Shown here one piece after another: positions 16,305 through 25,084 of a stretch of 64,000 bases of DNA. Position 1 is the first letter of the stretch; the number at the start of each line of letters is the position of its first letter. Source of the DNA: Ornithinibacillus sp. 4-3 (GTDB taxonomy: Bacteria > Bacillota > Bacilli > Bacillales > Amphibacillaceae). The DNA is taken from positions 778,001 to 842,000 of the forward strand of contig NZ_CP162599.1 in NCBI RefSeq assembly GCF_040958695.1, read 5' to 3'. A program made the translations under genes and the position numbers. The notes under the pieces are model-generated. The model searched no databases. It saw only the letters and a program-made list of their open reading frames with translations, and had not been told where the DNA came from.

Positions 16305-17069
16305 TTATCGTAAATCCTCTTTCATTTTATATTTGATAGCTATCACAGAAAATACAGCTAAGAAAATGACTGCCACACCAGCAACATGAATAACATCATT
16401 TGTATGATGTAAGTCTTTTGTGCTCGTAATTGTGTTCACTAATAAGTAGGAAGATAGATTTGTGTTGCTAATAAGAGACTCTAATGCACTTATGACCATT
16501 CCCAAGGCATTCAATGAGAGGACGATTCCAATTACAATAATGGCGATTACATTTTTAATAATCATGGCTACACACATTACTACAATGGAAAATGCCCAAT
16601 GGAGTAAAAACTGTCCGATTAGTAGCTTTATGAAGTACCCTAAATCTCCGATAGTAGCATGACCAAAGAACAATGATCTTCCAATTAAATCAGCCATAAG
16701 CATCGCAAGGAATATAAGCATGGTGAATATTCCTAGGATCAGGATTTTTGAAAGGACAGAATTCCTTCGCGCGTTTTTCATGGATATATAATTTTTATAA
16801 AAGCCAGAGTTGTATTCAGTGATATAAAAGTAGACGCTGAATACAGCAATATACATTAATACCCATGATGGAGTTTGACCTAGCATCATTTGGATAAATT
16901 GACTTTCATTCATACTGCTGATTAGCATTTCTCCTTGGACAGCAGGCTGGGCATATTGTTTCAGCATAAATATGCCAAAGATTTGAAAAGCAATAAAGAC
17001 AAGTAATAATACATACATTATTTTATTTGAAAAGAAACGGTTTAGATCCATTTTGAGTAGATTAATCAT
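16305..17069 (-). CDS. ABC-2 type permease, bacitracin/lantibiotic-export type
   Basis: The 254-residue protein has six hydrophobic helices, begins MINLLKMDLNRFFSNK, and has the layout of BcrB/LanE-type permeases that expel or exclude membrane-active peptides. ATG at 17069 lies within the end of the ATPase gene, so the two are translationally coupled; a GTG at 17078 is an alternative. It is the last gene of an operon of histidine kinase, response regulator, ATPase and permease. The likely role is self-defence against a cell-wall-directed peptide, inferred from the operon and not from a specific motif. Confidence 0.85.
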   Translation of the reverse strand: MINLLKMDLNRFFSNKIMYVLLLVFIAFQIFGIFMLKQYAQPAVQGEMLISSMNESQFIQMMLGQTPSWVLMYIAVFSVYFYITEYNSGFYKNYISMKNARRNSVLSKILILGIFTMLIFLAMLMADLIGRSLFFGHATIGDLGYFIKLLIGQFLLHWAFSIVVMCVAMIIKNVIAIIVIGIVLSLNALGMVISALESLISNTNLSSYLLVNTITSTKDLHHTNDVIHVAGVAVIFLAVFSVIAIKYKMKEDLR

Positions 17070-17988
17070 GTGTATCACCGCCGCTTCCTGTCCGTTCCAA
17101 AAAGTATTGTTCTAAACTCTGTTTATGTTTTGTAATGTAGTGAACAAAGACCCCGTTTTCAGCAAGTGTTTTAACGATTTGTTGGCTTTCCACATGTGTA
17201 TCATGGATATGAATGATACGTTCATTGATTACTTTGTATCTTTGAATTCCTAGATTTTTTTCCAAAATAGGAATAGCCATTTTAGCTTCGTCAACTTCTA
17301 ATTCAATACGATTTTCACATTGAAGCAATAATTCTTCTTTAGAAATATTTTCAATAACCTTACCATGATGAAGGATTACATATTTGGTTGCCACCTTTGA
17401 TAACTCCTCCAATATATGGCTGGAAATAATGATAGTAATTCCTGTCTTATTCAAATCCAAAATCAACTTCCGGATTTCAGAAATACCTTGTGGATCAAGT
17501 CCATTAATGGGTTCATCCAAAATTAACACATCTGGACTTCCTATTAATGCAACTGCTATCCCTAATCTTTGCTTCATACCCATGGAAAAGTTTTTGACCT
17601 TCTTCTTGTGAGTTCTATCCAAACCAACTAGCTTTAGTAGGTCGTTAATATATCTCTGACGATCTTTTAGCCCATAGGAAATGGCTATTAAATCAAGATT
17701 TTTATAAGCAGAATAATTTGGGTATACTCCTGTATTTTCAATTAATAAACCCATTCGCTCGAAATAAGAATGGTTTTCTTGTACTGCATGATCAAATAAA
17801 TGAATTTTTCCAGATGAAGGATAGATCAATCCCCCAATCATTTTCAGCAAAGTAGATTTTCCAGCTCCATTTGGACCGATCAATCCGAAGATTTCACCCT
17901 TCCGTATTTTGAAATCTACGTTATCTACGGCTACTTTTGCTTTAAATTTTTTGGTTAGCTGTTTCACTTCAATAATTTCACTCGACAT
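17062..17988 (-). CDS. ABC transporter ATPase, BcrA-type
   Basis: The 308-residue ATPase has Walker A GPNGAGKST (residues 38-46), signature NFSMGMKQRLG (about 133-143), Walker B VLILDEP (154-160), and a C-terminal extension of about 90 residues as in BcrA/LanF proteins for bacitracin and lantibiotic resistance. GGAGGG precedes the ATG. It overlaps the permease gene by eight bases, and the two presumably make the exporter. The two-component genes upstream on the same strand probably control expression. Confidence 0.9.
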   Translation of the reverse strand: MSSEIIEVKQLTKKFKAKVAVDNVDFKIRKGEIFGLIGPNGAGKSTLLKMIGGLIYPSSGKIHLFDHAVQENHSYFERMGLLIENTGVYPNYSAYKNLDLIAISYGLKDRQRYINDLLKLVGLDRTHKKKVKNFSMGMKQRLGIAVALIGSPDVLILDEPINGLDPQGISEIRKLILDLNKTGITIIISSHILEELSKVATKYVILHHGKVIENISKEELLLQCENRIELEVDEAKMAIPILEKNLGIQRYKVINERIIHIHDTHVESQQIVKTLAENGVFVHYITKHKQSLEQYFLERTGSGGDTHD

Positions 17989-18072
17989 ATTGGTTACCCT
18001 CCTTAGAAATTAATGTAATAAAAGAAAGCTAATATAACGTCAAGAAAAGGTTAAGAAAGTTCAAAGAAACAT

Positions 18073-18771
18073 TTATTTGCTTAACCGAAAACCAATCCCC
18101 CATACTGTTTCAATATAATTCTCATCATCAAAGGCTTTGATTTTATTACGAATATTACTGATGTGAACAGTAATGGTCTTATCTTCTCCAACATATATTT
18201 CATCCCAAGCTAGCTCATATAAGTCCTGTCTAGTAAACACACGTGTTGGATTTTTTATTAAGAGTTCAATGATTTTATATTCTTGCCTAGTAAGATTTAA
18301 TTCTGATTGATGAACGGTAACACTCATTGTGTCACTATCTAAAGTTAAGTTTTTATGTCTGTAGGATGTAGTGGTTCTAATTTTAGTATTTCTTTTGAGA
18401 TGTACATGGATTCTGGCGAGCAATTCTTCTACTTCAAACGGCTTGGTGACATAATCGTCAGCTCCCAAATCAAATAAGTTTAATTTGTGATCGAGCTTTT
18501 CTTTGGCAGATAGTACAATCACTGGTGTGTCATACTGTAAATCTGTTCTTAGTTCATTCATAAAAGCTTCTCCTGATAAACCTGGAAGCATAAGGTCTAA
18601 GATAATAAGGTCATAGGCTTGCTGACTAACATTTATTTTCCCTTCACTACCAGAAAAGGCTTGTGTACATAGGAAATTCTCTTTCTGCAGGACATCATAG
18701 ATAATATTATTGATATGCTCATCATCCTCAATAATTAGGATATGAGGTTGTCTACTTTCATTCTCTAGCAT
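18073..18771 (-). CDS. OmpR-family response regulator
   Basis: The 232-residue protein has a receiver domain with acidic pocket EDD (residues 15-17), phospho-acceptor Asp59 (IILDLMLPG) and Lys110 (VTKPF), followed by an OmpR-type winged helix from about residue 135 with the terminal YIETVWGIGFRL motif. It is a complete transcription factor. AAGGAGG stands before the start. It is encoded just after its kinase and just before the BcrAB-type transporter, which is the probable target. Confidence 0.92.
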   Translation of the reverse strand: MLENESRQPHILIIEDDEHINNIIYDVLQKENFLCTQAFSGSEGKINVSQQAYDLIILDLMLPGLSGEAFMNELRTDLQYDTPVIVLSAKEKLDHKLNLFDLGADDYVTKPFEVEELLARIHVHLKRNTKIRTTTSYRHKNLTLDSDTMSVTVHQSELNLTRQEYKIIELLIKNPTRVFTRQDLYELAWDEIYVGEDKTITVHISNIRNKIKAFDDENYIETVWGIGFRLSK

Positions 18772-18792
18772 GCTTATCCTCCTTTTTAAATA

Positions 18793-19671
18793 TCACACTG
18801 ATACAAAATTGATTGCCTCTAAATCAGCATGGACATGGCCATCCATTTTCTCAACAAGTGATTTTACAATGGAAAGACCTAATCCCGAAGAAGGATGGCT
18901 ACGCGAGGAATCTTCTTTATAAAAACGAGTAAATATCTTGTTGAAATTAATCAATTGGCTTTGTTTCAGCAGGTTACGAAAATGTAGTCGAGCTTCATTT
19001 TGACTTTCTTCATACTGGATTGTTAAAGTTCCTTCTCCGTGGGAAAAATAATTTCTAATAATATTTTCATAGACTCTCTCTAATGCATTCTGATCACCCA
19101 TCATATAGACAGGGAGCTCTGGGAGACTAATGTCTGGTTCCTCACCATTTTGATTAAATTCATCGATGAAAAAGAATAAACGTTTCTTCAGTGTATTAAC
19201 TAAATCAACGGATTCAAGCTTTAAATGATAATCTGGGTTTTGCAATTTTGTATATAAGAACAGTTCATCTACAAGTGTAATAATCTGTTTTATTCTAGTC
19301 TGAGCCAAAGAAACATAATGTGCTTTCTCATCGGGATTTTCAGAGCGCTCAGCTAGCTGTAGGTAACCGTCAAGTGAGGTGAGTGGAGTTCGTATGTCAT
19401 GGGATAAGCTAACAATTGTCTGATTGATTTCTTCATTTTTCTTTATAAATGCTTGGTTTTGGTCTCTTTGCTTGCGAAGAAATGTATTGCATACTTCCAT
19501 CAGTTGATAAATTTCTTTAGGTTTAATTTGAGACTGAATAAACTTGAAGGAATGATGCTTTGAAATAAAGGTTAGCTGATTTCCAATATCCTTTACCTGG
19601 TTTTTGTAGTACAGCAAGTAAACTGTCTGAATGATAAATGCGATGGATATTAGGATTAAGGCAATAAGCAT
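18793..19671 (-). CDS. Sensor histidine kinase with one or few membrane segments
   Basis: The 292-residue kinase has an N-terminal membrane helix (about residues 2-21), H-box SLSHDIRTPLTSL with phospho-acceptor His91, N-box YENIIRNY (201-208) and a glycine box SSGLGLSIVK (261-270). The usual DxGxG between them is replaced by a HFRNLL-like segment, as in other small peptide-sensing kinases. It has almost no extracellular domain, so, like the intramembrane-sensing kinases, it may read the state of its ABC transporter. Unusually it is the first gene of the operon, before its regulator. Confidence 0.9.
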   Translation of the reverse strand: MLIALILISIAFIIQTVYLLYYKNQVKDIGNQLTFISKHHSFKFIQSQIKPKEIYQLMEVCNTFLRKQRDQNQAFIKKNEEINQTIVSLSHDIRTPLTSLDGYLQLAERSENPDEKAHYVSLAQTRIKQIITLVDELFLYTKLQNPDYHLKLESVDLVNTLKKRLFFFIDEFNQNGEEPDISLPELPVYMMGDQNALERVYENIIRNYFSHGEGTLTIQYEESQNEARLHFRNLLKQSQLINFNKIFTRFYKEDSSRSHPSSGLGLSIVKSLVEKMDGHVHADLEAINFVSV

Positions 19672-20310
19672 TTCTCCACTTCCTTTTTAAATAATGACGA
19701 AAATTTTCTTTGTCATCATTGTATATCAAAAATCTGTTATTTTCGATATGAAGCTGCTCAAGATATGAAAATAAGAGGTTAATAATATTCTTTTGAATTG
19801 TTACTAGAAAAGGTTTTTCATAAAATAATATGAAATTATTCTCGCGTTACAATTACTTTCTATGCGAAATCTTCACTTATCCCACTTTATATGAAATTCG
19901 GCTTAAATTATTAACCTTCTTTCGCTTTAATATAATAGAAAGCTAATACTTGAACAGAAAATCAAAAAGAGAAGCATTCTAAGAAGAAACCTAACAAAAG
20001 GGAATATTTACAGAGTTATTTAATAAAATAGGAGGAAGAAATTCAATGAAATAACCTTGGAAAAATTAATGAAAATTTCCACAACACACTTGTTTAAACT
20101 CGATGCAGGGATATTTTTAGAGATAATCGAATTATAGAATAACAATAGTAGAATTATTTAATGGTACCGATTGAAAATCAGGAATTTGATTATATTTAAG
20201 TGTAAGTAATTCTTATTCTATAGAAATAGCAGGAAAAGTTCAGATGAATCAAAAAATTAGAAAAAAACTTTGATTTTCTCATCTTTTTCTAAATAGGAGT
20301 AGTTTTTTTT
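19672..20310. other. Long intergenic region between the two ABC systems, with inverted repeat and decayed starts
   Basis: About 640 bp without a supported gene. AAGAGGTTAATAAT near 19772-19785 recurs inverted as ATTATTAACCTTCT near 19907-19920, possibly a binding site for the adjacent response regulator. At about 20030-20050 a good GGAGG site is followed by ATG AAA TAA, which looks like a decayed gene start. Confidence 0.45.
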
Positions 20311-20359
20311 GTGTATTAATACTATAATACGGTTTAATGGTGTATTAATAACATAATAC
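20311..20359 (+). promoter_or_regulatory. Twin 20-bp operator-like repeats before the PASTA/ABC operon
   Basis: GTGTATTAATACTATAATAC (20311-20330) is repeated at 20340-20359 with three differences, 29 bp apart. Each copy is a partial palindrome GTATTA/TAATAC, and the first contains TATAAT, a possible -10. The arrangement resembles paired operators of GntR-type (YtrA-like) repressors, but no such regulator gene is present here. Confidence 0.6.
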
Positions 20360-20388
20360 AATTTGGTACCCAGGTAGGGAGGTGGAAT

Positions 20389-20424
20389 ATGTTAAATAAG
20401 AAAATTATGGGCAATTATTTTTAA
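20389..20424 (+). CDS. Possible 11-codon leader peptide or remnant
   Basis: ATG with a very good GGGAGGTGG ribosome site begins the 11-codon frame MLNKKIMGNYF, ending 30 bp before the FtsX-like permease. It may be a leader peptide or the vestige of a lost regulator gene. No other evidence supports translation. Confidence 0.3.
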   Translation: MLNKKIMGNYF

Positions 20425-20454
20425 AATAACAGTAGATTTGTAGGGGGGTCAATT

Positions 20455-21918
20455 ATGAATTTTATTAAACGGGGATTTTTAGGAATTACAAGAAAAAAGG
20501 GAAAATCTCTTATTCTATTAGCAGTTATTTTTATTTTAGGGAATCTAATATCTGGTGCTATTTCGATTCAACAGGCAACAGGGAATGTAGAAGCAACCAT
20601 TAAGGAAAGACTAGGTACAGCAGCAACTGTTGATATGGATTATGAAGCATTTGAGAAATTACCTGAAGAAGAACAAATGGAAGTAGAATGGGCACCGCTA
20701 AAACCTGATATGATTAAGCAAATCGGTGACCTTTCATATGTGAAATACTATGATTATAGTATGTCTCAATGGATGAGCTCAGATAGTATTAGTCCGGTTC
20801 AGAGCGAAGATATGATGATGATGGAAGACTATTATCAGTTTGTCCTTAAAGGAATTAATTATGCTCCAGTTATTGATTTTGAAGAAGGGAAAGCCAAATT
20901 AATTGATGGGCGTGTATTTACAGATGAAGAGATTGAGAATGGTACGCCTGTAACTATTATTTCTGAAGCACTAGCAGCTGAAAATAATCTTGCGGTTGGA
21001 GACAATTTTACTTTAGTAAAGAACGTACTAACTTATGATGATGAAACAGGCGAAGAGAGCGTAGTTGCTTCTCGTGATCTAGTCTTAGAGATTATTGGGG
21101 TATTTGACCCGCAGTTAGTAAGAAATGATGAAAACGATAGTAGTACTAGTAGTGCTACGATGATGTTTGTGGACGATACAGAGAAACAGAATATGATGTA
21201 TGTCGCAAATGAGATTGTTATTCAAGAGACAGAATTTGAATGGACTGAAATGTTAAAAGCAGATCCTGAATGGGCAGATATGATGTCAGACGAGGATACA
21301 TTTGAATACTACGAGCCAATTTTTTATTTAAATAATCCAGAAGATGTTGAACCGTTTAGAGAAGAGGTTTTACCTTTATTACCAGAATACTATACGGTAA
21401 TCAGTGCAAGTGATCAATATGATCGAATTGCAGGACCAATGGAGTCCATGTCGAAACTATCAAAATATGTTTTAATTGCGGCAGTAGGAGCGACAATCTT
21501 AATTACAGGTTTAGTAGTGTTACTTTTCTTGCGAGATCGTAAACGTGAATTAGGTATTTACCTATCGTTAGGTGAGAAGCGCAGTAAAGTAATTGGACAA
21601 ATCTTAATTGAAGTAATTGTTGTTGCATTTGTAGGAATTACGATATCCCTATTCAGTGGAAACCTTTTAGCTGGACAGGTCTCAGATACAATGATGAAAT
21701 CGGACAATAATCAAGAGGACTACTACGGTGGTTATGTTTATTATGATGCATTGGAAAGTAATATAACTACAGATGATGTATTAGATTCTTATGAAGTACA
21801 ATTAGATTTAGGCTATGTATTAGCTTTCTATGGAATTGGCTTATTAACTATCCTAATGGCAACGATTATTCCGTTAGTTTATATTGTACGTTTGAATCCG
21901 AAGAAAATTTTAATGTGA
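20455..21918 (+). CDS. FtsX/MacB-type ABC permease
   Basis: The 487-residue protein starts with a membrane helix (about residues 16-37) and a large acidic extracellular domain to about residue 335. It ends with three helices (about 340-362, 385-405 and 455-480), including the FtsX-type loop RDRKRELGIYLSLGEKRSKV. This is the MacB topology, in which the machine works on extracellular or membrane substrates mechanically and not by channel transport. GGGGGG stands before the ATG. The ATPase and PASTA-protein genes follow directly, so the three should form one complex. Such modules serve peptide resistance, signalling or wall remodelling; which one applies here is unknown. Confidence 0.88.
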   Translation: MNFIKRGFLGITRKKGKSLILLAVIFILGNLISGAISIQQATGNVEATIKERLGTAATVDMDYEAFEKLPEEEQMEVEWAPLKPDMIKQIGDLSYVKYYDYSMSQWMSSDSISPVQSEDMMMMEDYYQFVLKGINYAPVIDFEEGKAKLIDGRVFTDEEIENGTPVTIISEALAAENNLAVGDNFTLVKNVLTYDDETGEESVVASRDLVLEIIGVFDPQLVRNDENDSSTSSATMMFVDDTEKQNMMYVANEIVIQETEFEWTEMLKADPEWADMMSDEDTFEYYEPIFYLNNPEDVEPFREEVLPLLPEYYTVISASDQYDRIAGPMESMSKLSKYVLIAAVGATILITGLVVLLFLRDRKRELGIYLSLGEKRSKVIGQILIEVIVVAFVGITISLFSGNLLAGQVSDTMMKSDNNQEDYYGGYVYYDALESNITTDDVLDSYEVQLDLGYVLAFYGIGLLTILMATIIPLVYIVRLNPKKILM

Positions 21919-21936
21919 CGGTAAGGGGGGAACATA

Positions 21937-22608
21937 ATGATATTAGAAGCGAAAGGTTTAAATTATTATTATCAAGATGGTGAACAGCGTCGTTATATTT
22001 TAAAGGATACATCCATTTCTTTTGAAAAAGGAAAATTCTATACAATATTAGGCCAATCTGGTTCTGGAAAAACTACTTTATTATCCTTACTCAGTGCATT
22101 AGAAACACCGCATAGTGGGGAAGTATTATTCAATAATCAAGATATTAAAAAAATTGGCTATGAAAAATATCGTCGGAATAATATCGGAATTATTTTTCAA
22201 AGCTATAATTTAATTCCAACATTCACTGCTGTTGAGAATGTCTTAGTTCCAATGGCTATTACAGAAAATGAATTGCCAAGTGAAAAACACACAGTTGCAT
22301 ATAATTTACTGGATTATATTGGAATTGTAAAAAGCAAAGCAGATCGTCTTGTTAACAAGCTATCTGGTGGAGAACAGCAGCGTGTAGCTATTGCTCGTGC
22401 ATTAGCTACAAACGTAGAGTTAATTTTTGCCGATGAGCCTACTGGGAACTTAGATGAAGAGATGGAACAGGAAATCATTGATATATTTAAGAAATTAGCA
22501 CATGAACATGGAAAATGCGTTATCGTAGTAACACACTCTAATGAAATTGCTGTACAATCTGATCAGGCTTTTCGCTTAAGGAAGGGTGTACTATCTCCTT
22601 ATGAGTGA
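21937..22608 (+). CDS. MacB/LolD-type ABC ATPase
   Basis: The 223-residue protein has Walker [10 protein letters not shown] (39-47), Q-loop [10 protein letters not shown], signature [15 protein letters not shown] (142-156) and Walker [14 protein letters not shown] (161-173). This is the usual signature of ATPases pairing with FtsX-like permeases. GGGGGG lies 7 bases before the start. It follows the permease by 18 bp and overlaps the PASTA-protein gene by 8 bp, so all three are translated together. Confidence 0.93.
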
Positions 22609-24103
22609 TTTTTTATCAAAATTTAATAAAGATAATTATGATGATATGGTAGACGAGAAAGGCCAAAAAGATCAGAAAGATGTACAAGAAAATAATGTAG
22701 AGAAACAGCAAGAAGAGCAATTAGAGTTGAATCAGGCAGAATATGAGGAAACTGAGGAACAAGTAGATTTAAGTCCTAAACAGGATACATCAACTAACAC
22801 CTCACCGTTAGTTTCTTCAAGAAGTACGCGAAGACAAGATTCTGAAGAAGAAGTAGAGATTGATTTAGACTATCGCAAGAAAAAGAAACAAAAAATGATT
22901 ATACTGATAGCGGGTTCTGTTGTAGCCGCTATCTTCCTATTCTTTATCTATCATATGCTTGTCCATGTGAAGCTAGAAAATTTCGTAGATAGACCAGTTT
23001 CAGAGGTGCGTGCTTGGGCCACAGAAAATGATGTTGAAGTTGAATTGGAACAAGAATATAGCATGGAGCATGATGCAAATGAAGTTATTCTGCAAAGTGT
23101 TTCTGAAGGGGACAAAATCAGAAAAGGAAAGACTCTTACAATAACAAGTAGTTTAGGAGCTGACCCAGATGAAACACTTCCACTGCCGGAATTCTCGGAA
23201 ATGAATCAAGAAGAAGCAAGAGTTTGGATTGATGAAAATAAAGCAGAAAATCTACAAATGGTGACAGAGTTTAGTGATGATATTGAAGAAGGAAGCTTTA
23301 TTAAACTTACTATCAAGAATAGTGATATTGATCCATCAGAATATACTAGAAAAGATAGTGCCGCTGTTTATTATTCCAAAGGAAAAGAAGTTTTTGAGAA
23401 GAATATTACAATCCCTGATTTTGTTGGTCAGCCTAAAGAAGAAGTGGAGAAATGGGTAGAGACAAATGAGATTGAAATGACTTATGAAGAAGCAGATTCA
23501 GATAGCGTAGAAGCTGGAAATATTATCAGTCAAAGTGAAGCAGCAGAAGGGAAGATTGCAAAAAGAGATAAAATGACAGTTGTTGTTTCAGCAGGAAAAG
23601 CAATTGTTGTACCTAATTTTACTGAATTAACTCCAGACGAAGCAGCGATGAATTATCCTGATTTAAATGTGACAGTAAAGCAAAGATTTCATGGAGAAGT
23701 GGCTTATGGGACAATGATCTCGCAGTCCGTTGACGCAGGTACAAAGCTGTTAGAAAGTGATGATAAAAATGTCACTGTTACATATTCACAAGGAAGACCA
23801 TATTTACAGGATTTCCGTGGACAATCAGAGGGCGACCTGCCAAGACTATTTTATGAGCAGTATAAGTCAAAAGGTGCTGATATTAACTATATTGTAAAAT
23901 ATGTTGATTCTGATGAAATCAAAGGTACAGTAGTTGGTATGGGTAACTTTAATGAATTTGTCGCAATGAAATACACCGTAGAAATTCGGATTAGCAATAA
24001 TAAGTATGCACCACCAAATCCACCAGACTTTTCTGAAGAGGGTGGAGACATCTATCCAGAGCCAGATGATGAAGAAATACCAGAAGAAGTTCCGGAAAAA
24101 TAA
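22601..24103 (+). CDS. Membrane-anchored PASTA-repeat protein of the ABC operon
   Basis: The 500-residue protein has an acidic, glutamine-rich cytosolic part (about 1-95), one membrane helix (about 99-121) and an extracellular part of about four or five PASTA repeats. These are marked by I-P-D-F-V-G-Q, VPNFTELTPDEA and repeated VVSAGK-like ends. The tail is rich in P, D and E. PASTA repeats are known mostly from PrkC/StkP kinases and penicillin-binding proteins, where they bind muropeptides or lipid II; here no kinase or transpeptidase domain is present. ATG at 22601 overlaps the ATPase stop (ATGAGTGA); GTG at 22586 is possible. I infer a wall-sensing or substrate-delivering subunit of the FtsX-type transporter. 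Confidence 0.85.
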   Translation: MSDFLSKFNKDNYDDMVDEKGQKDQKDVQENNVEKQQEEQLELNQAEYEETEEQVDLSPKQDTSTNTSPLVSSRSTRRQDSEEEVEIDLDYRKKKKQKMIILIAGSVVAAIFLFFIYHMLVHVKLENFVDRPVSEVRAWATENDVEVELEQEYSMEHDANEVILQSVSEGDKIRKGKTLTITSSLGADPDETLPLPEFSEMNQEEARVWIDENKAENLQMVTEFSDDIEEGSFIKLTIKNSDIDPSEYTRKDSAAVYYSKGKEVFEKNITIPDFVGQPKEEVEKWVETNEIEMTYEEADSDSVEAGNIISQSEAAEGKIAKRDKMTVVVSAGKAIVVPNFTELTPDEAAMNYPDLNVTVKQRFHGEVAYGTMISQSVDAGTKLLESDDKNVTVTYSQGRPYLQDFRGQSEGDLPRLFYEQYKSKGADINYIVKYVDSDEIKGTVVGMGNFNEFVAMKYTVEIRISNNKYAPPNPPDFSEEGGDIYPEPDDEEIPEEVPEK

Positions 24104-24140
24104 AGTACATTGATTTGAACTAGAAAAATATAAATCGCTG

Positions 24141-24206
24141 AACTGCTCTCTGTTAGAAGATAGATTTGAAAGTGAAATCTGTTTATCTGATAGGGAGCAG
24201 TTTTAG
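24141..24206 (+). terminator. Terminator of the PASTA/ABC operon
   Basis: AACTGCTC near 24141 and GAGCAGTT near 24200 enclose a longer imperfect stem (AGATAGATTT with AAATCTGTTTATCT) and are followed by TTTTAG. It stands 38 bp after the PASTA-protein stop. Confidence 0.7.
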
Positions 24207-24229
24207 TATTTCCTATTTTGAAATGTAGT

Positions 24230-24322
24230 TCAATCAAACATAATTGCTTCTATAATTCCCATGACCTGTTCGATTACTTCTTGTGGTGCCTCTTCTACGA
24301 ATTTATAATTTCTCGCTTTTAA
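24230..24322 (-). pseudogene. Fragment of a protein-coding sequence
   Basis: A stretch of about 30 codons on the reverse strand reads like a real C-terminus (KFVEEAPQEVIEQVMGII, then EAIMFD and stop). It is preceded in frame by TAA and has no start. I do not recognise the parent protein. It is best seen as debris of a lost gene. Confidence 0.35.
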
Positions 24323-24435
24323 GGTTTAGAGAAATTACAGCAGGAAAAATAGGAGAGGTTTGTAAAGATGAGTTGAAAGAAAACGATTTATATTTTGAAT
24401 TAAAGGGAATTACAATTATTACGAGGAGGTTCACT

Positions 24436-24462
24436 ATGGAAAACGGTACTAATTCCGTTTAG
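24436..24462 (+). other. Eight-codon frame with strong ribosome site
   Basis: GAGGAGG is followed by ATG and the frame MENGTNSV ending in TAG, with AACGG and CCGTT as a small inverted repeat inside. It precedes the DUF308 gene by 95 bp. It could be a leader peptide or the start of a dead gene. Confidence 0.25.
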
Positions 24463-24556
24463 GATATATTCGTCTTGTTAAAATTATCCATTCCTATAGT
24501 AAAAAAACGATTTTTACATTAAAATAATAAAAAAACATATAAGGAGGTAATACTAA

Positions 24557-25084
24557 ATGATCAAGATTAGGGAGTTCAAAGAAAACTTTCAACGTCATGC
24601 GATTCTCCGAGCTGTTATATTTATATTCATTGGAGTAGCTATTTTTATTAACCCAAATGGCTTTCTTCATTTTATCGGTTATTTGATTGCTGGATATCTG
24701 ACCTTACTAGGTGTGATTAAAATATATCAAAGCTACAAATTTAAACAGCAGACTGGTACTTATGATATAGCTTTAGCAATTGGTATTATCTTGATTATAT
24801 TAGCAGCTATCTTCATTTACTTTGCACCAACTATTTTCTCCATTTTGCCATTCGTACTAGGTTTAGCGATTATTATCAATGGATTAATGCACCTGATTGT
24901 AGCATTGAATCTAAAGAGTACAGGCTGGACTATTTTTTGTATCCTACTCATGGCCGGGGGAGCTGTCCTTGTTTTTAACCCTTTCCAAAGTACATTAGTA
25001 TTATTTCAAGCGTTTGGAGTTATCTTGACATGTATAGGTATCTCTGAAATTGTTGGACATTTTCAAAATAGAGAAAACAATTAG
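24557..25084 (+). CDS. DUF308 (HdeD-like) membrane protein
   Basis: The 175-residue protein has six hydrophobic helices in pairs, with repeated patterns such as GVAIFINPNGFL and GGAVLVFNPFQS that mark the DUF308 repeats (HdeD family). HdeD of E. coli supports acid resistance at high cell density, but for Firmicute members the role is unknown. A perfect AAGGAGG site precedes the ATG. It is a single gene ended by a terminator shared with the convergent binding-protein gene. Confidence 0.8.
   Translation: MIKIREFKENFQRHAILRAVIFIFIGVAIFINPNGFLHFIGYLIAGYLTLLGVIKIYQSYKFKQQTGTYDIALAIGIILIILAAIFIYFAPTIFSILPFVLGLAIIINGLMHLIVALNLKSTGWTIFCILLMAGGAVLVFNPFQSTLVLFQAFGVILTCIGISEIVGHFQNRENN

What the first reader, a model, noticed from the sequence alone, without database searches (positions are those of the whole stretch)
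20311..24103. ABC transporter of the FtsX type with a dedicated PASTA-repeat subunit
Permease, ATPase and a kinase-free, membrane-anchored PASTA protein overlap or nearly touch, so they must act together. PASTA domains normally bind muropeptides or lipid II in kinases and PBPs. A mechanotransmitting ABC machine carrying them would be an uncommon cell-wall sensing, protection or remodelling system, and is my best candidate for an undescribed system here.
Basis: partly seen in the sequence, partly recalled or inferred. Interest (0 to 1): 0.7.

Follow-up and report, generated by a model that had tools for sequence, protein, structure and literature searches.

The report
ABC machine with a PASTA subunit
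Three adjacent genes look like one ATP-driven membrane machine that carries its own arm of PASTA repeats, a module known from cell-wall sensors; the trio recurs as a unit in many Gram-positive bacteria, I found no description of it, and here its promoter carries the DNA site of a repressor family tied to cell-wall stress.

Summary
At 20455-24103 lie a 4-TM MacB/YclI-type permease (487 aa), an ABC ATPase (223 aa) and a kinase-free, single-TM protein (500 aa) with five PASTA-fold units. The order permease-ATPase-PASTA occurs in 80 of 80 named loci. The PASTA-linked permeases stand apart from their nearest relatives, YclHI-type pairs without PASTA. The PASTA protein begins MSDFLSxF in 78 of 80 loci, and trio ATPases are far more conserved than YclHI-type ones at equal permease divergence; I infer that the PASTA tail docks on the ATPase. 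Upstream sit two palindromes, GTATTA-N6-TAATAC (20313-20330, 20342-20359). The only third exact copy in the genome precedes a YtrA/PmtR-like GntR regulator with an ABC-2 operon; over 16 genomes 34 of 40 exact sites lie at that operon (25) or at the trio (9). That suggests an envelope-stress regulon, though many relatives lack the site at the trio. Best reading: a type VII ABC machine with a PASTA adaptor in the place of MacA, serving or protecting the lipid II cycle. Complex, ligand and function are inferred. Five literature searches gave no description. New variant of a known kind.

The parts
20313..20330. Operator palindrome 1, GTATTA-N6-TAATAC; contains TATAAT at 20323-20328 that could serve as -10 (the consensus scan did not list it)
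   Evidence: Exact match; with palindrome 2, two of the 3 exact sites in the 3.69 Mb genome, where the reversed control pattern has 2; TATAAT position.
20342..20359 (.). Operator palindrome 2, same motif, 29 bp from palindrome 1
   Evidence: sites with at most 1 mismatch in 13 of 81 trio upstreams (window and 12 of 80 loci) against a shuffle mean of 0.55 and 1 of 2790 control windows.
20389..20424 (+). 11-codon leader mini-ORF with a Shine-Dalgarno-like sequence; significance unknown
   Evidence: not seen in the 15 relatives scanned there, two of which have other short ATG ORFs.
20455..21918 (+). Permease, 487 aa, 4 TM, MacB/YknZ-like extracellular domain about residues 55-317, FtsX C-terminal domain
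   Evidence: 28% identity to YclI; pLDDT 85.3.
21937..22608 (+). ABC ATPase, 223 aa, LolD/FtsE-like
   Evidence: unusually conserved within trios.
22601..24103 (+). PASTA subunit, 500 aa: cytosolic tail, one TM, five PASTA-fold units
22601..22639 (+). N-terminal motif [13 protein letters not shown], inferred to be cytosolic
   Evidence: M1, D3, F4, L5, S6, F8 invariant in 64 aligned sequences; 78 of 80 loci begin MSDFLSxF.
22871..22963 (+). Transmembrane helix (residues 91-121)
22964..23995 (+). Five PASTA-fold units, inferred extracellular (about residues 122-184, 188-259, 268-330, 334-396, 400-465)
   Evidence: Secondary structure; Pfam scores three stretches; unit boundaries set by me.

Best explanation
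The three genes make one type VII (MacB-fold) ABC machine: probably two permeases, two ATPases and one or more PASTA subunits. It does not pump across the membrane; ATP binding and hydrolysis move the permeases' extracellular domains. The PASTA subunit plays the part that MacA plays in MacB systems: a single-TM adaptor whose cytosolic tail (MSDFLSxF) and TM helix gate the ATPase, while its five-unit rod reaches into the wall zone and recognises nascent peptidoglycan or lipid II. In this genome it is made on demand, under a YtrA/PmtR-like GntR repressor that also controls its own ABC-2 transporter operon, when the lipid II cycle is disturbed; it then frees wall precursors of bound antimicrobial peptides, or otherwise keeps the lipid II cycle running. 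Shown by computation: genes, folds, conservation, operator distribution. Inferred: complex, topology, docking site, ligand, repression by this GntR, inducer, output.
For: Trio order in 80 of 80 named loci, in 11 of 11 copies from 10 of 398 class genomes, own genome included, and intact in 4 of 5 matching genomes of the phylum outside the class; the fifth has broken frames. In a permease-profile scan the 11 hits beyond E 1e-180 are the PASTA-linked ones; the next are 3e-111 and 6e-75 (at most 3 candidates scored per genome). Fold: MacB, pneumococcal 5xu1, LolCDE, YtrEF, YknZ extracellular domain. N-terminal motif. ATPase constraint: at permease identity 0.35-0.42 trio ATPases average 0.70 identity (942 pairs) against 0.51 (42 pairs) in 15 YclHI-like pairs. 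Precedent: pneumococcal MacA stimulates MacB ATPase, but not without its cytoplasmic region and TM helix (passage, PMC5985334). Regulation: 3 exact sites in the genome, two here, one before a GntR-ABC-2 operon; in 16 genomes 25 of 40 exact sites at that operon, 9 at the trio, 6 elsewhere. B. subtilis YtrA binds AGTGTA-13bp-TACACT and its operon answers lipid II-cycle inhibitors (passages, PMC8060467, PMC12772383). In 14 of 80 loci, all Enterococcus, an RR, an HK and an ATPase precede the trio, and in 6, all Oceanobacillus, an HK and an 863-aa-type FtsX permease do.
Against: No complex, ligand or phenotype was tested. The operator at the trio is limited to a sub-clade: 13 of 81 upstream regions at up to 1 mismatch; the same-genus locus L018/L210 and Amphibacillus, Gracilibacillus and other loci lack it. 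The reversed control pattern is nearly as frequent genome-wide (2 against 3 here; 22 against 37 in 15 genomes), so only the position of the sites is informative. The B. subtilis ytr study found no consistent role in antibiotic survival (abstract of PMC12772383). PASTA units need not bind wall ligands. ATPase conservation could have other causes; the comparison set is small and not matched by phylogeny. Enterococcal copies between frr and uppS and Vagococcus copies between glyS and dnaG have no regulator among the neighbours scanned.
Confidence: 0.45

Rival explanations
1. Sensor, not effector: the ABC machine loads or pulls the PASTA rod and passes the state of the wall inward through the cytosolic tail to a kinase or two-component system, as BceAB does for BceS.
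For: Near-invariant N-terminal motif and a conserved E/D-rich stretch before the TM; two-component genes before the trio in 14 plus 6 of 80 loci, the one Oceanobacillus kinase examined having two TM segments with a loop of about five residues; PASTA units most like those of PrkC-type kinases.
Against: Response-regulator homologues occur in only 22 of 80 loci; the enterococcal kinase examined (L044) has about 50 residues between its TM segments, so is not of the intramembrane-sensing layout; at this genome's trio the visible control is a GntR-type site.
Confidence: 0.2
2. FtsEX-like control of a wall hydrolase: the PASTA subunit holds and positions a hydrolase, and ATP cycling switches it on.
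For: Same fold superfamily as FtsEX (8tzj, 8ymc and others); PASTA is a wall-zone module by analogy.
Against: No hydrolase among the 20 representative neighbours scanned, and no neighbour family in more than 22 of 80 loci; most neighbour clusters were not annotated. The extracellular domain is MacB/YknZ-like.
Confidence: 0.15
3. Peptide exporter or self-immunity machine, with PASTA as a wall guide for the peptide.
For: One source names a YclI relative Vex3, Pep export; the ATPase scores 191 bits against the bacteriocin-export subfamily L_ocin_972_ABC, below its cut-off of 255.
Against: No peptide gene was recognised, but only 20 neighbours of the 80 loci were scanned and ORFs under 80 aa were not clustered, so this is weak.
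Confidence: 0.1
4. The PASTA gene is co-transcribed but works apart from the ABC pair.
For: YclHI-type pairs exist without one.
Against: Not seen apart from the pair in the loci examined; distance matrices of permease and PASTA agree at r 0.94 over 77 loci, though shared ancestry alone gives high r.
Confidence: 0.05

Closest known systems
B. subtilis YclHI (type VII exporter, 'Unknown' function in the table of PMC11466899, passage)
   Same: Full-length permease similarity, 28% identity, E 4e-49; 4-TM layout and separate ATPase gene
   Different: The YclI-like pairs opened have no PASTA gene; in 5 of 5 scanned by Pfam an OmpR-type RR and an HK lie beside them; the trio permeases form a separate score group
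MacAB, pneumococcal SpMacAB, YknXYZ
   Same: MacB fold of the permease; a single-TM partner with a cytosolic tail
   Different: Partner is a PASTA rod, not a MacA-type adaptor; gene order permease-ATPase-PASTA; ATPase not fused as in MacB
B. subtilis YtrBCDEF and its GntR repressor YtrA
   Same: Type VII pair YtrEF (9o9x among the fold hits); a GntR-type palindrome at the promoter
   Different: No PASTA gene in the ytrGABCDEF operon as described in PMC8060467; operator spacing N13 there, N12 here by the GTGTA...TACAC reading; here the trio lies 312 kb from the gntR operon
PASTA kinases (PrkC/StkP/PknB)
   Same: TM plus first three PASTA units align in order with the genome's own PASTA kinase, 24% identity over about 250 aa, E 1e-13
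   Different: No kinase domain; two further PASTA-fold units; different cytosolic tail

Membership tests
Type VII (MacB-fold) ABC systems | Permease with 4 TM, large extracellular domain between TM1 and TM2, FtsX-like core | tested here: met
Type VII (MacB-fold) ABC systems | Partner ABC ATPase | tested here: met
   (gene next door; partnership inferred)
MacAB proper | ATPase fused to the permease | tested here: not met
   Separate genes
MacAB proper | MacA-type adaptor in the operon | tested here: not met
   The third gene scores PASTA and no adaptor family; only the three genes and seven neighbours were scanned
YclHI | Full-length sequence similarity to YclI | tested here: met
YclHI | Two-gene system beside its own RR-HK pair | tested here: not met
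   Third gene present; the neighbouring RR and HK (292 aa, one TM by hydropathy) are on the other strand in a row with an ABC-2 pair
FtsEX | Cognate hydrolase or EnvC-like partner | tested here: inconclusive
   None seen among scanned neighbours; a distant partner is not excluded
BceAB | 10-TM single permease | tested here: not met
   4 TM by hydropathy and model
PASTA kinases | Ser/Thr kinase domain | tested here: not met
   (the kinase model NF033483 matches only its PASTA part)
PASTA kinases | PASTA domains on a single-TM protein | tested here: met
PASTA function | Binding of muropeptide, lipid II or beta-lactam | not testable with these tools
   Needs a binding assay
YtrA regulon | Operator AGTGTA-N13-TACACT and repression by YtrA | tested here: inconclusive
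   Related palindrome, one base less spacing; the regulator's best NCBIfam model is PmtR, 62 bits against a cut-off of 200; binding not tested

The most novel reading that the evidence does not exclude
A new class of envelope machine: an ATP-driven PASTA sensor-effector. The PASTA rod reads nascent wall or lipid II, its invariant cytosolic tail gates the ATPase, and the machine acts only where the lipid II cycle is blocked, making ligand-gated mechanotransmission the link between PASTA recognition and ABC power.
Probability: 0.3. Interest if true: 0.8.

Novelty: new variant of a known kind. Interest (0 to 1): 0.62.

Why it matters
PASTA modules are known from kinases and penicillin-binding proteins, type VII ABC systems from work done outside the membrane; here the two are joined in a conserved, patchily distributed cassette: 21 of 120 sampled genomes of the family, 10 of 398 of the class, and five more genomes of the phylum outside the class, one with broken frames. 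If the PASTA tail gates the ATPase, the trio gives a direct experimental handle on what PASTA rods read and on what MacB-type machines do in Gram-positive walls; the function of the nearest B. subtilis relative, YclHI, is listed as unknown.

Tried and rejected
Defence system: PADLOC matches were ATPase-containing families (best mad3, 2.6e-32) and the PASTA part of PD-T4-6 models; none for the permease. Read as shared domains; rejected. Phage or plasmid origin: tblastn gave 2 partial phage hits of 25-26% and 6 plasmid hits, five in Enterococcus raffinosus records of about 1 Mb, one of them covering 95% and four about 60% of the query. Rfam family in 19600-24800: none at gathering threshold. Sigma-70 scan: 28 sites against 22.6 in shuffles, uninformative. 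Other proteins with the N-terminal motif: a pattern scan of the loci then held gave only an unrelated protein in three loci. The two-component/ABC-2 genes at 16305-19671 as the trio's regulator: considered, no support found, not tested further. Leader element in ten relatives: aligned, not folded.

Limits and dropped rows. One search returned the best 80 of 156 relatives; 76 were not seen. Only 20 neighbours of those loci were scanned by Pfam, and one more (a response regulator of L044); other gene names there rest on clustering. L018, L025 and L036 were left out of the distance comparison, and the window was not in it. Alignments A2 and A3 hold 65 and 64 sequences chosen from window plus 80 loci. 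Of 20 non-PASTA loci L110-L129, 15 were used; L122, L123, L125, L126 and L129 were not. Frames in L011 and L036 are disturbed.

Literature. Searches were the searches for the trio. I saw passages of PMC4403809, PMC13377840 and PMC9503237; the first two do not concern it, and the last lists a 'PASTA domain-containing protein' of Enterococcus without saying which. The other papers listed (PMC5706477, PMC9765292, PMC8528326 among them) I did not open. Subscription papers are mostly outside that library. Recalled, from no call: the name YclJK and the notion of intramembrane-sensing kinases.
Full report
What is there. The window holds three same-strand genes. The permease (20455-21918, 487 aa) scores FtsX above and MacB_PCD just below the Pfam cut-offs; the ATPase (21937-22608, 223 aa) is LolD/FtsE-like; the third protein scores PASTA at 5.7e-31 with three stretches. 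The third gene's start is taken as ATG 22601, not GTG 22586, because relatives' proteins begin there: MSDFLSxF in 78 of 80 loci, MSNDFLSKF in L067, and a split frame in L036. It overlaps the ATPase gene by 8 nt, as in 77 of 80 loci. The overlap itself largely fixes the first three residues, but not FLSxF.

Conservation. The search for related loci gave the best 80 of 156 relatives. In 80 of 80 the order is permease, ATPase, PASTA on one strand, over Oceanobacillus and other Bacillaceae, Enterococcus, Vagococcus, Streptococcus and others, and one MAG labelled Coriobacteriales. The flanks differ: apart from the trio no protein cluster is shared by more than 22 loci. In an even sample of the class (Bacilli, judged from the named relatives) 10 of 398 genomes, the own one included, have the PASTA subunit; 11 copies, all with permease and ATPase beside it. 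In the family 21 of 120 genomes have it; in the 18 whose upstream I fetched the permease and ATPase are there (in L217, L219 and L220 the short piece of the PASTA gene was not itself called). In a phylum sample 7 of 398 genomes match, five of them outside the class; four of these have intact trios and one (L197) broken frames. These samples overlap each other and the named set, so they must not be added. Of the four intact trios outside the class two keep MSDFLSxF; the others read MSDFLNGF and, from an assumed start, MSSFLDKF.

Nearest relatives without PASTA. A permease-profile scan of 398 class genomes, scoring at most three candidates in each, gave 11 hits beyond E 1e-180, which are the PASTA-linked ones, then 3e-111, 6e-75 and weaker. 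Loci L110-L129 around the weaker hits have a permease and an ATPase but no PASTA hit. In five of those opened wider, an OmpR-type response regulator and a histidine kinase lie beside the pair, 5 of 5 by Pfam, four kinases with HAMP; the rest were not scanned. A sequence search from one such permease (L139) returns proteins that their sources name YclI; window permease and YclI are 28% identical end to end. The 3e-111 hit (L130) lies beside IS21 genes and a distant ATPase.

A sign that the third subunit touches the ATPase. At equal permease identity trio ATPases are much more alike than those of 15 YclHI-like pairs: 0.70 (942 pairs of systems, range 0.58-0.79) against 0.51 (42, 0.44-0.58) at permease identity 0.35-0.42, and 0.74 against 0.58 at 0.42-0.50. 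The sets differ in size (81 and 15) and in phylogeny. Twenty-one ATPase positions are nearly fixed in trios and mostly different in the pairs; these are candidates for a docking site. [quoted passage not shown]

Regulation. Two palindromes GTATTA-N6-TAATAC lie at 20313-20330 and 20342-20359, the first spanning a TATAAT. The genome has one more exact copy, about 230 bp before a GntR-family gene followed by an ABC-2-type ATPase, a membrane protein and a 433-aa protein without Pfam or NCBIfam match. In 15 further genomes with trios there are 37 exact sites: 24 at a homologous gntR operon, 7 at the trio, 6 elsewhere. With this genome the totals are 25, 9 and 6 of 40. L009's genome was not held. 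The reversed control pattern occurs 22 times in those 15 genomes and twice here, so the bare number of sites is not remarkable; their presence at one operon in all 15 and here is. Two of the 15 (G398, G411) are the same species by the titles of L010 and L048. At the trio, 13 of 81 upstream regions, window included, have a site with at most one mismatch, against a mean of 0.55 and a maximum of 3 in 300 single-base shuffles, and 1 of 2790 other windows of the same loci; several have a pair about 29-30 bp apart. One family member without a trio, G380, has three sites at its gntR operon, so that regulon exists without the trio. Sites are absent at the trio in many relatives. B. [quoted passage not shown] I take the GntR here to be of that kind, not to be YtrA itself; its best NCBIfam model is PmtR, far below the cut-off.

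Other contexts. In 14 of 80 loci, all Enterococcus, a response regulator, a kinase of the 363-aa cluster and an ATPase precede the trio; the gene between kinase and ATPase falls into two clusters in 12 of them, one member of each scanned, giving MacB_PCD above (L051) and FtsX just below (L044) the cut-off. In 6 Oceanobacillus loci a kinase of the 333-aa cluster and an 863-aa-type FtsX permease do. The L009 kinase has two hydrophobic segments with about five residues between, the layout of intramembrane-sensing kinases (recalled); the enterococcal L044 kinase has about 50 there and is not of that layout. In 8 enterococcal loci the trio sits between frr and uppS genes, and in 7 Vagococcus loci between glyS and dnaG, in some with another gene in between (one locus of each scanned by Pfam, the rest by clustering).

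Conclusion. The parts, their conservation and the operator are solid; the machine's action is not. The best reading joins them: a PASTA-armed MacB-fold machine for the lipid II cycle or against peptides that block it. Sensor, hydrolase-control and export readings remain open.

Noticed in passing
window 16305-19671, minus strand: Response regulator, histidine kinase (292 aa, one TM by hydropathy), ABC ATPase and ABC-2 permease in a row, like a peptide-immunity type module; no link to the trio seen.
   Followed up: partly
L148:7828-9129: 433-aa protein without Pfam or NCBIfam match; homologous pieces follow the gntR-ABC-2 genes in the relatives opened where the stretch reaches that far.
   Followed up: partly
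Upstream of the permease in Oceanobacillus-group loci, e.g. L031, L035, L016: A leader element AATGAGGTGA..TATCCAAG..CTTGGATA, possibly a hairpin or short ORF, shared by several relatives but not seen in the window.
   Followed up: partly
window 20389-20424: 11-codon mini-ORF with a Shine-Dalgarno-like sequence between operator and permease.
   Followed up: no
L055, L063, L073, L078, L080, L081, L085, L086: Enterococcal trio copies between frr and uppS, the latter encoding undecaprenyl diphosphate synthase.
   Followed up: partly
L197: A trio with broken frames in a 1.6 Mb genome outside the class; described only.
   Followed up: no
L130: A YclI-like permease beside IS21 genes, with a 728-aa protein of no Pfam family next to an ATPase.
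   Followed up: no
window 24557-25084: DUF308 protein, the next same-strand gene downstream of the trio.
   Followed up: no
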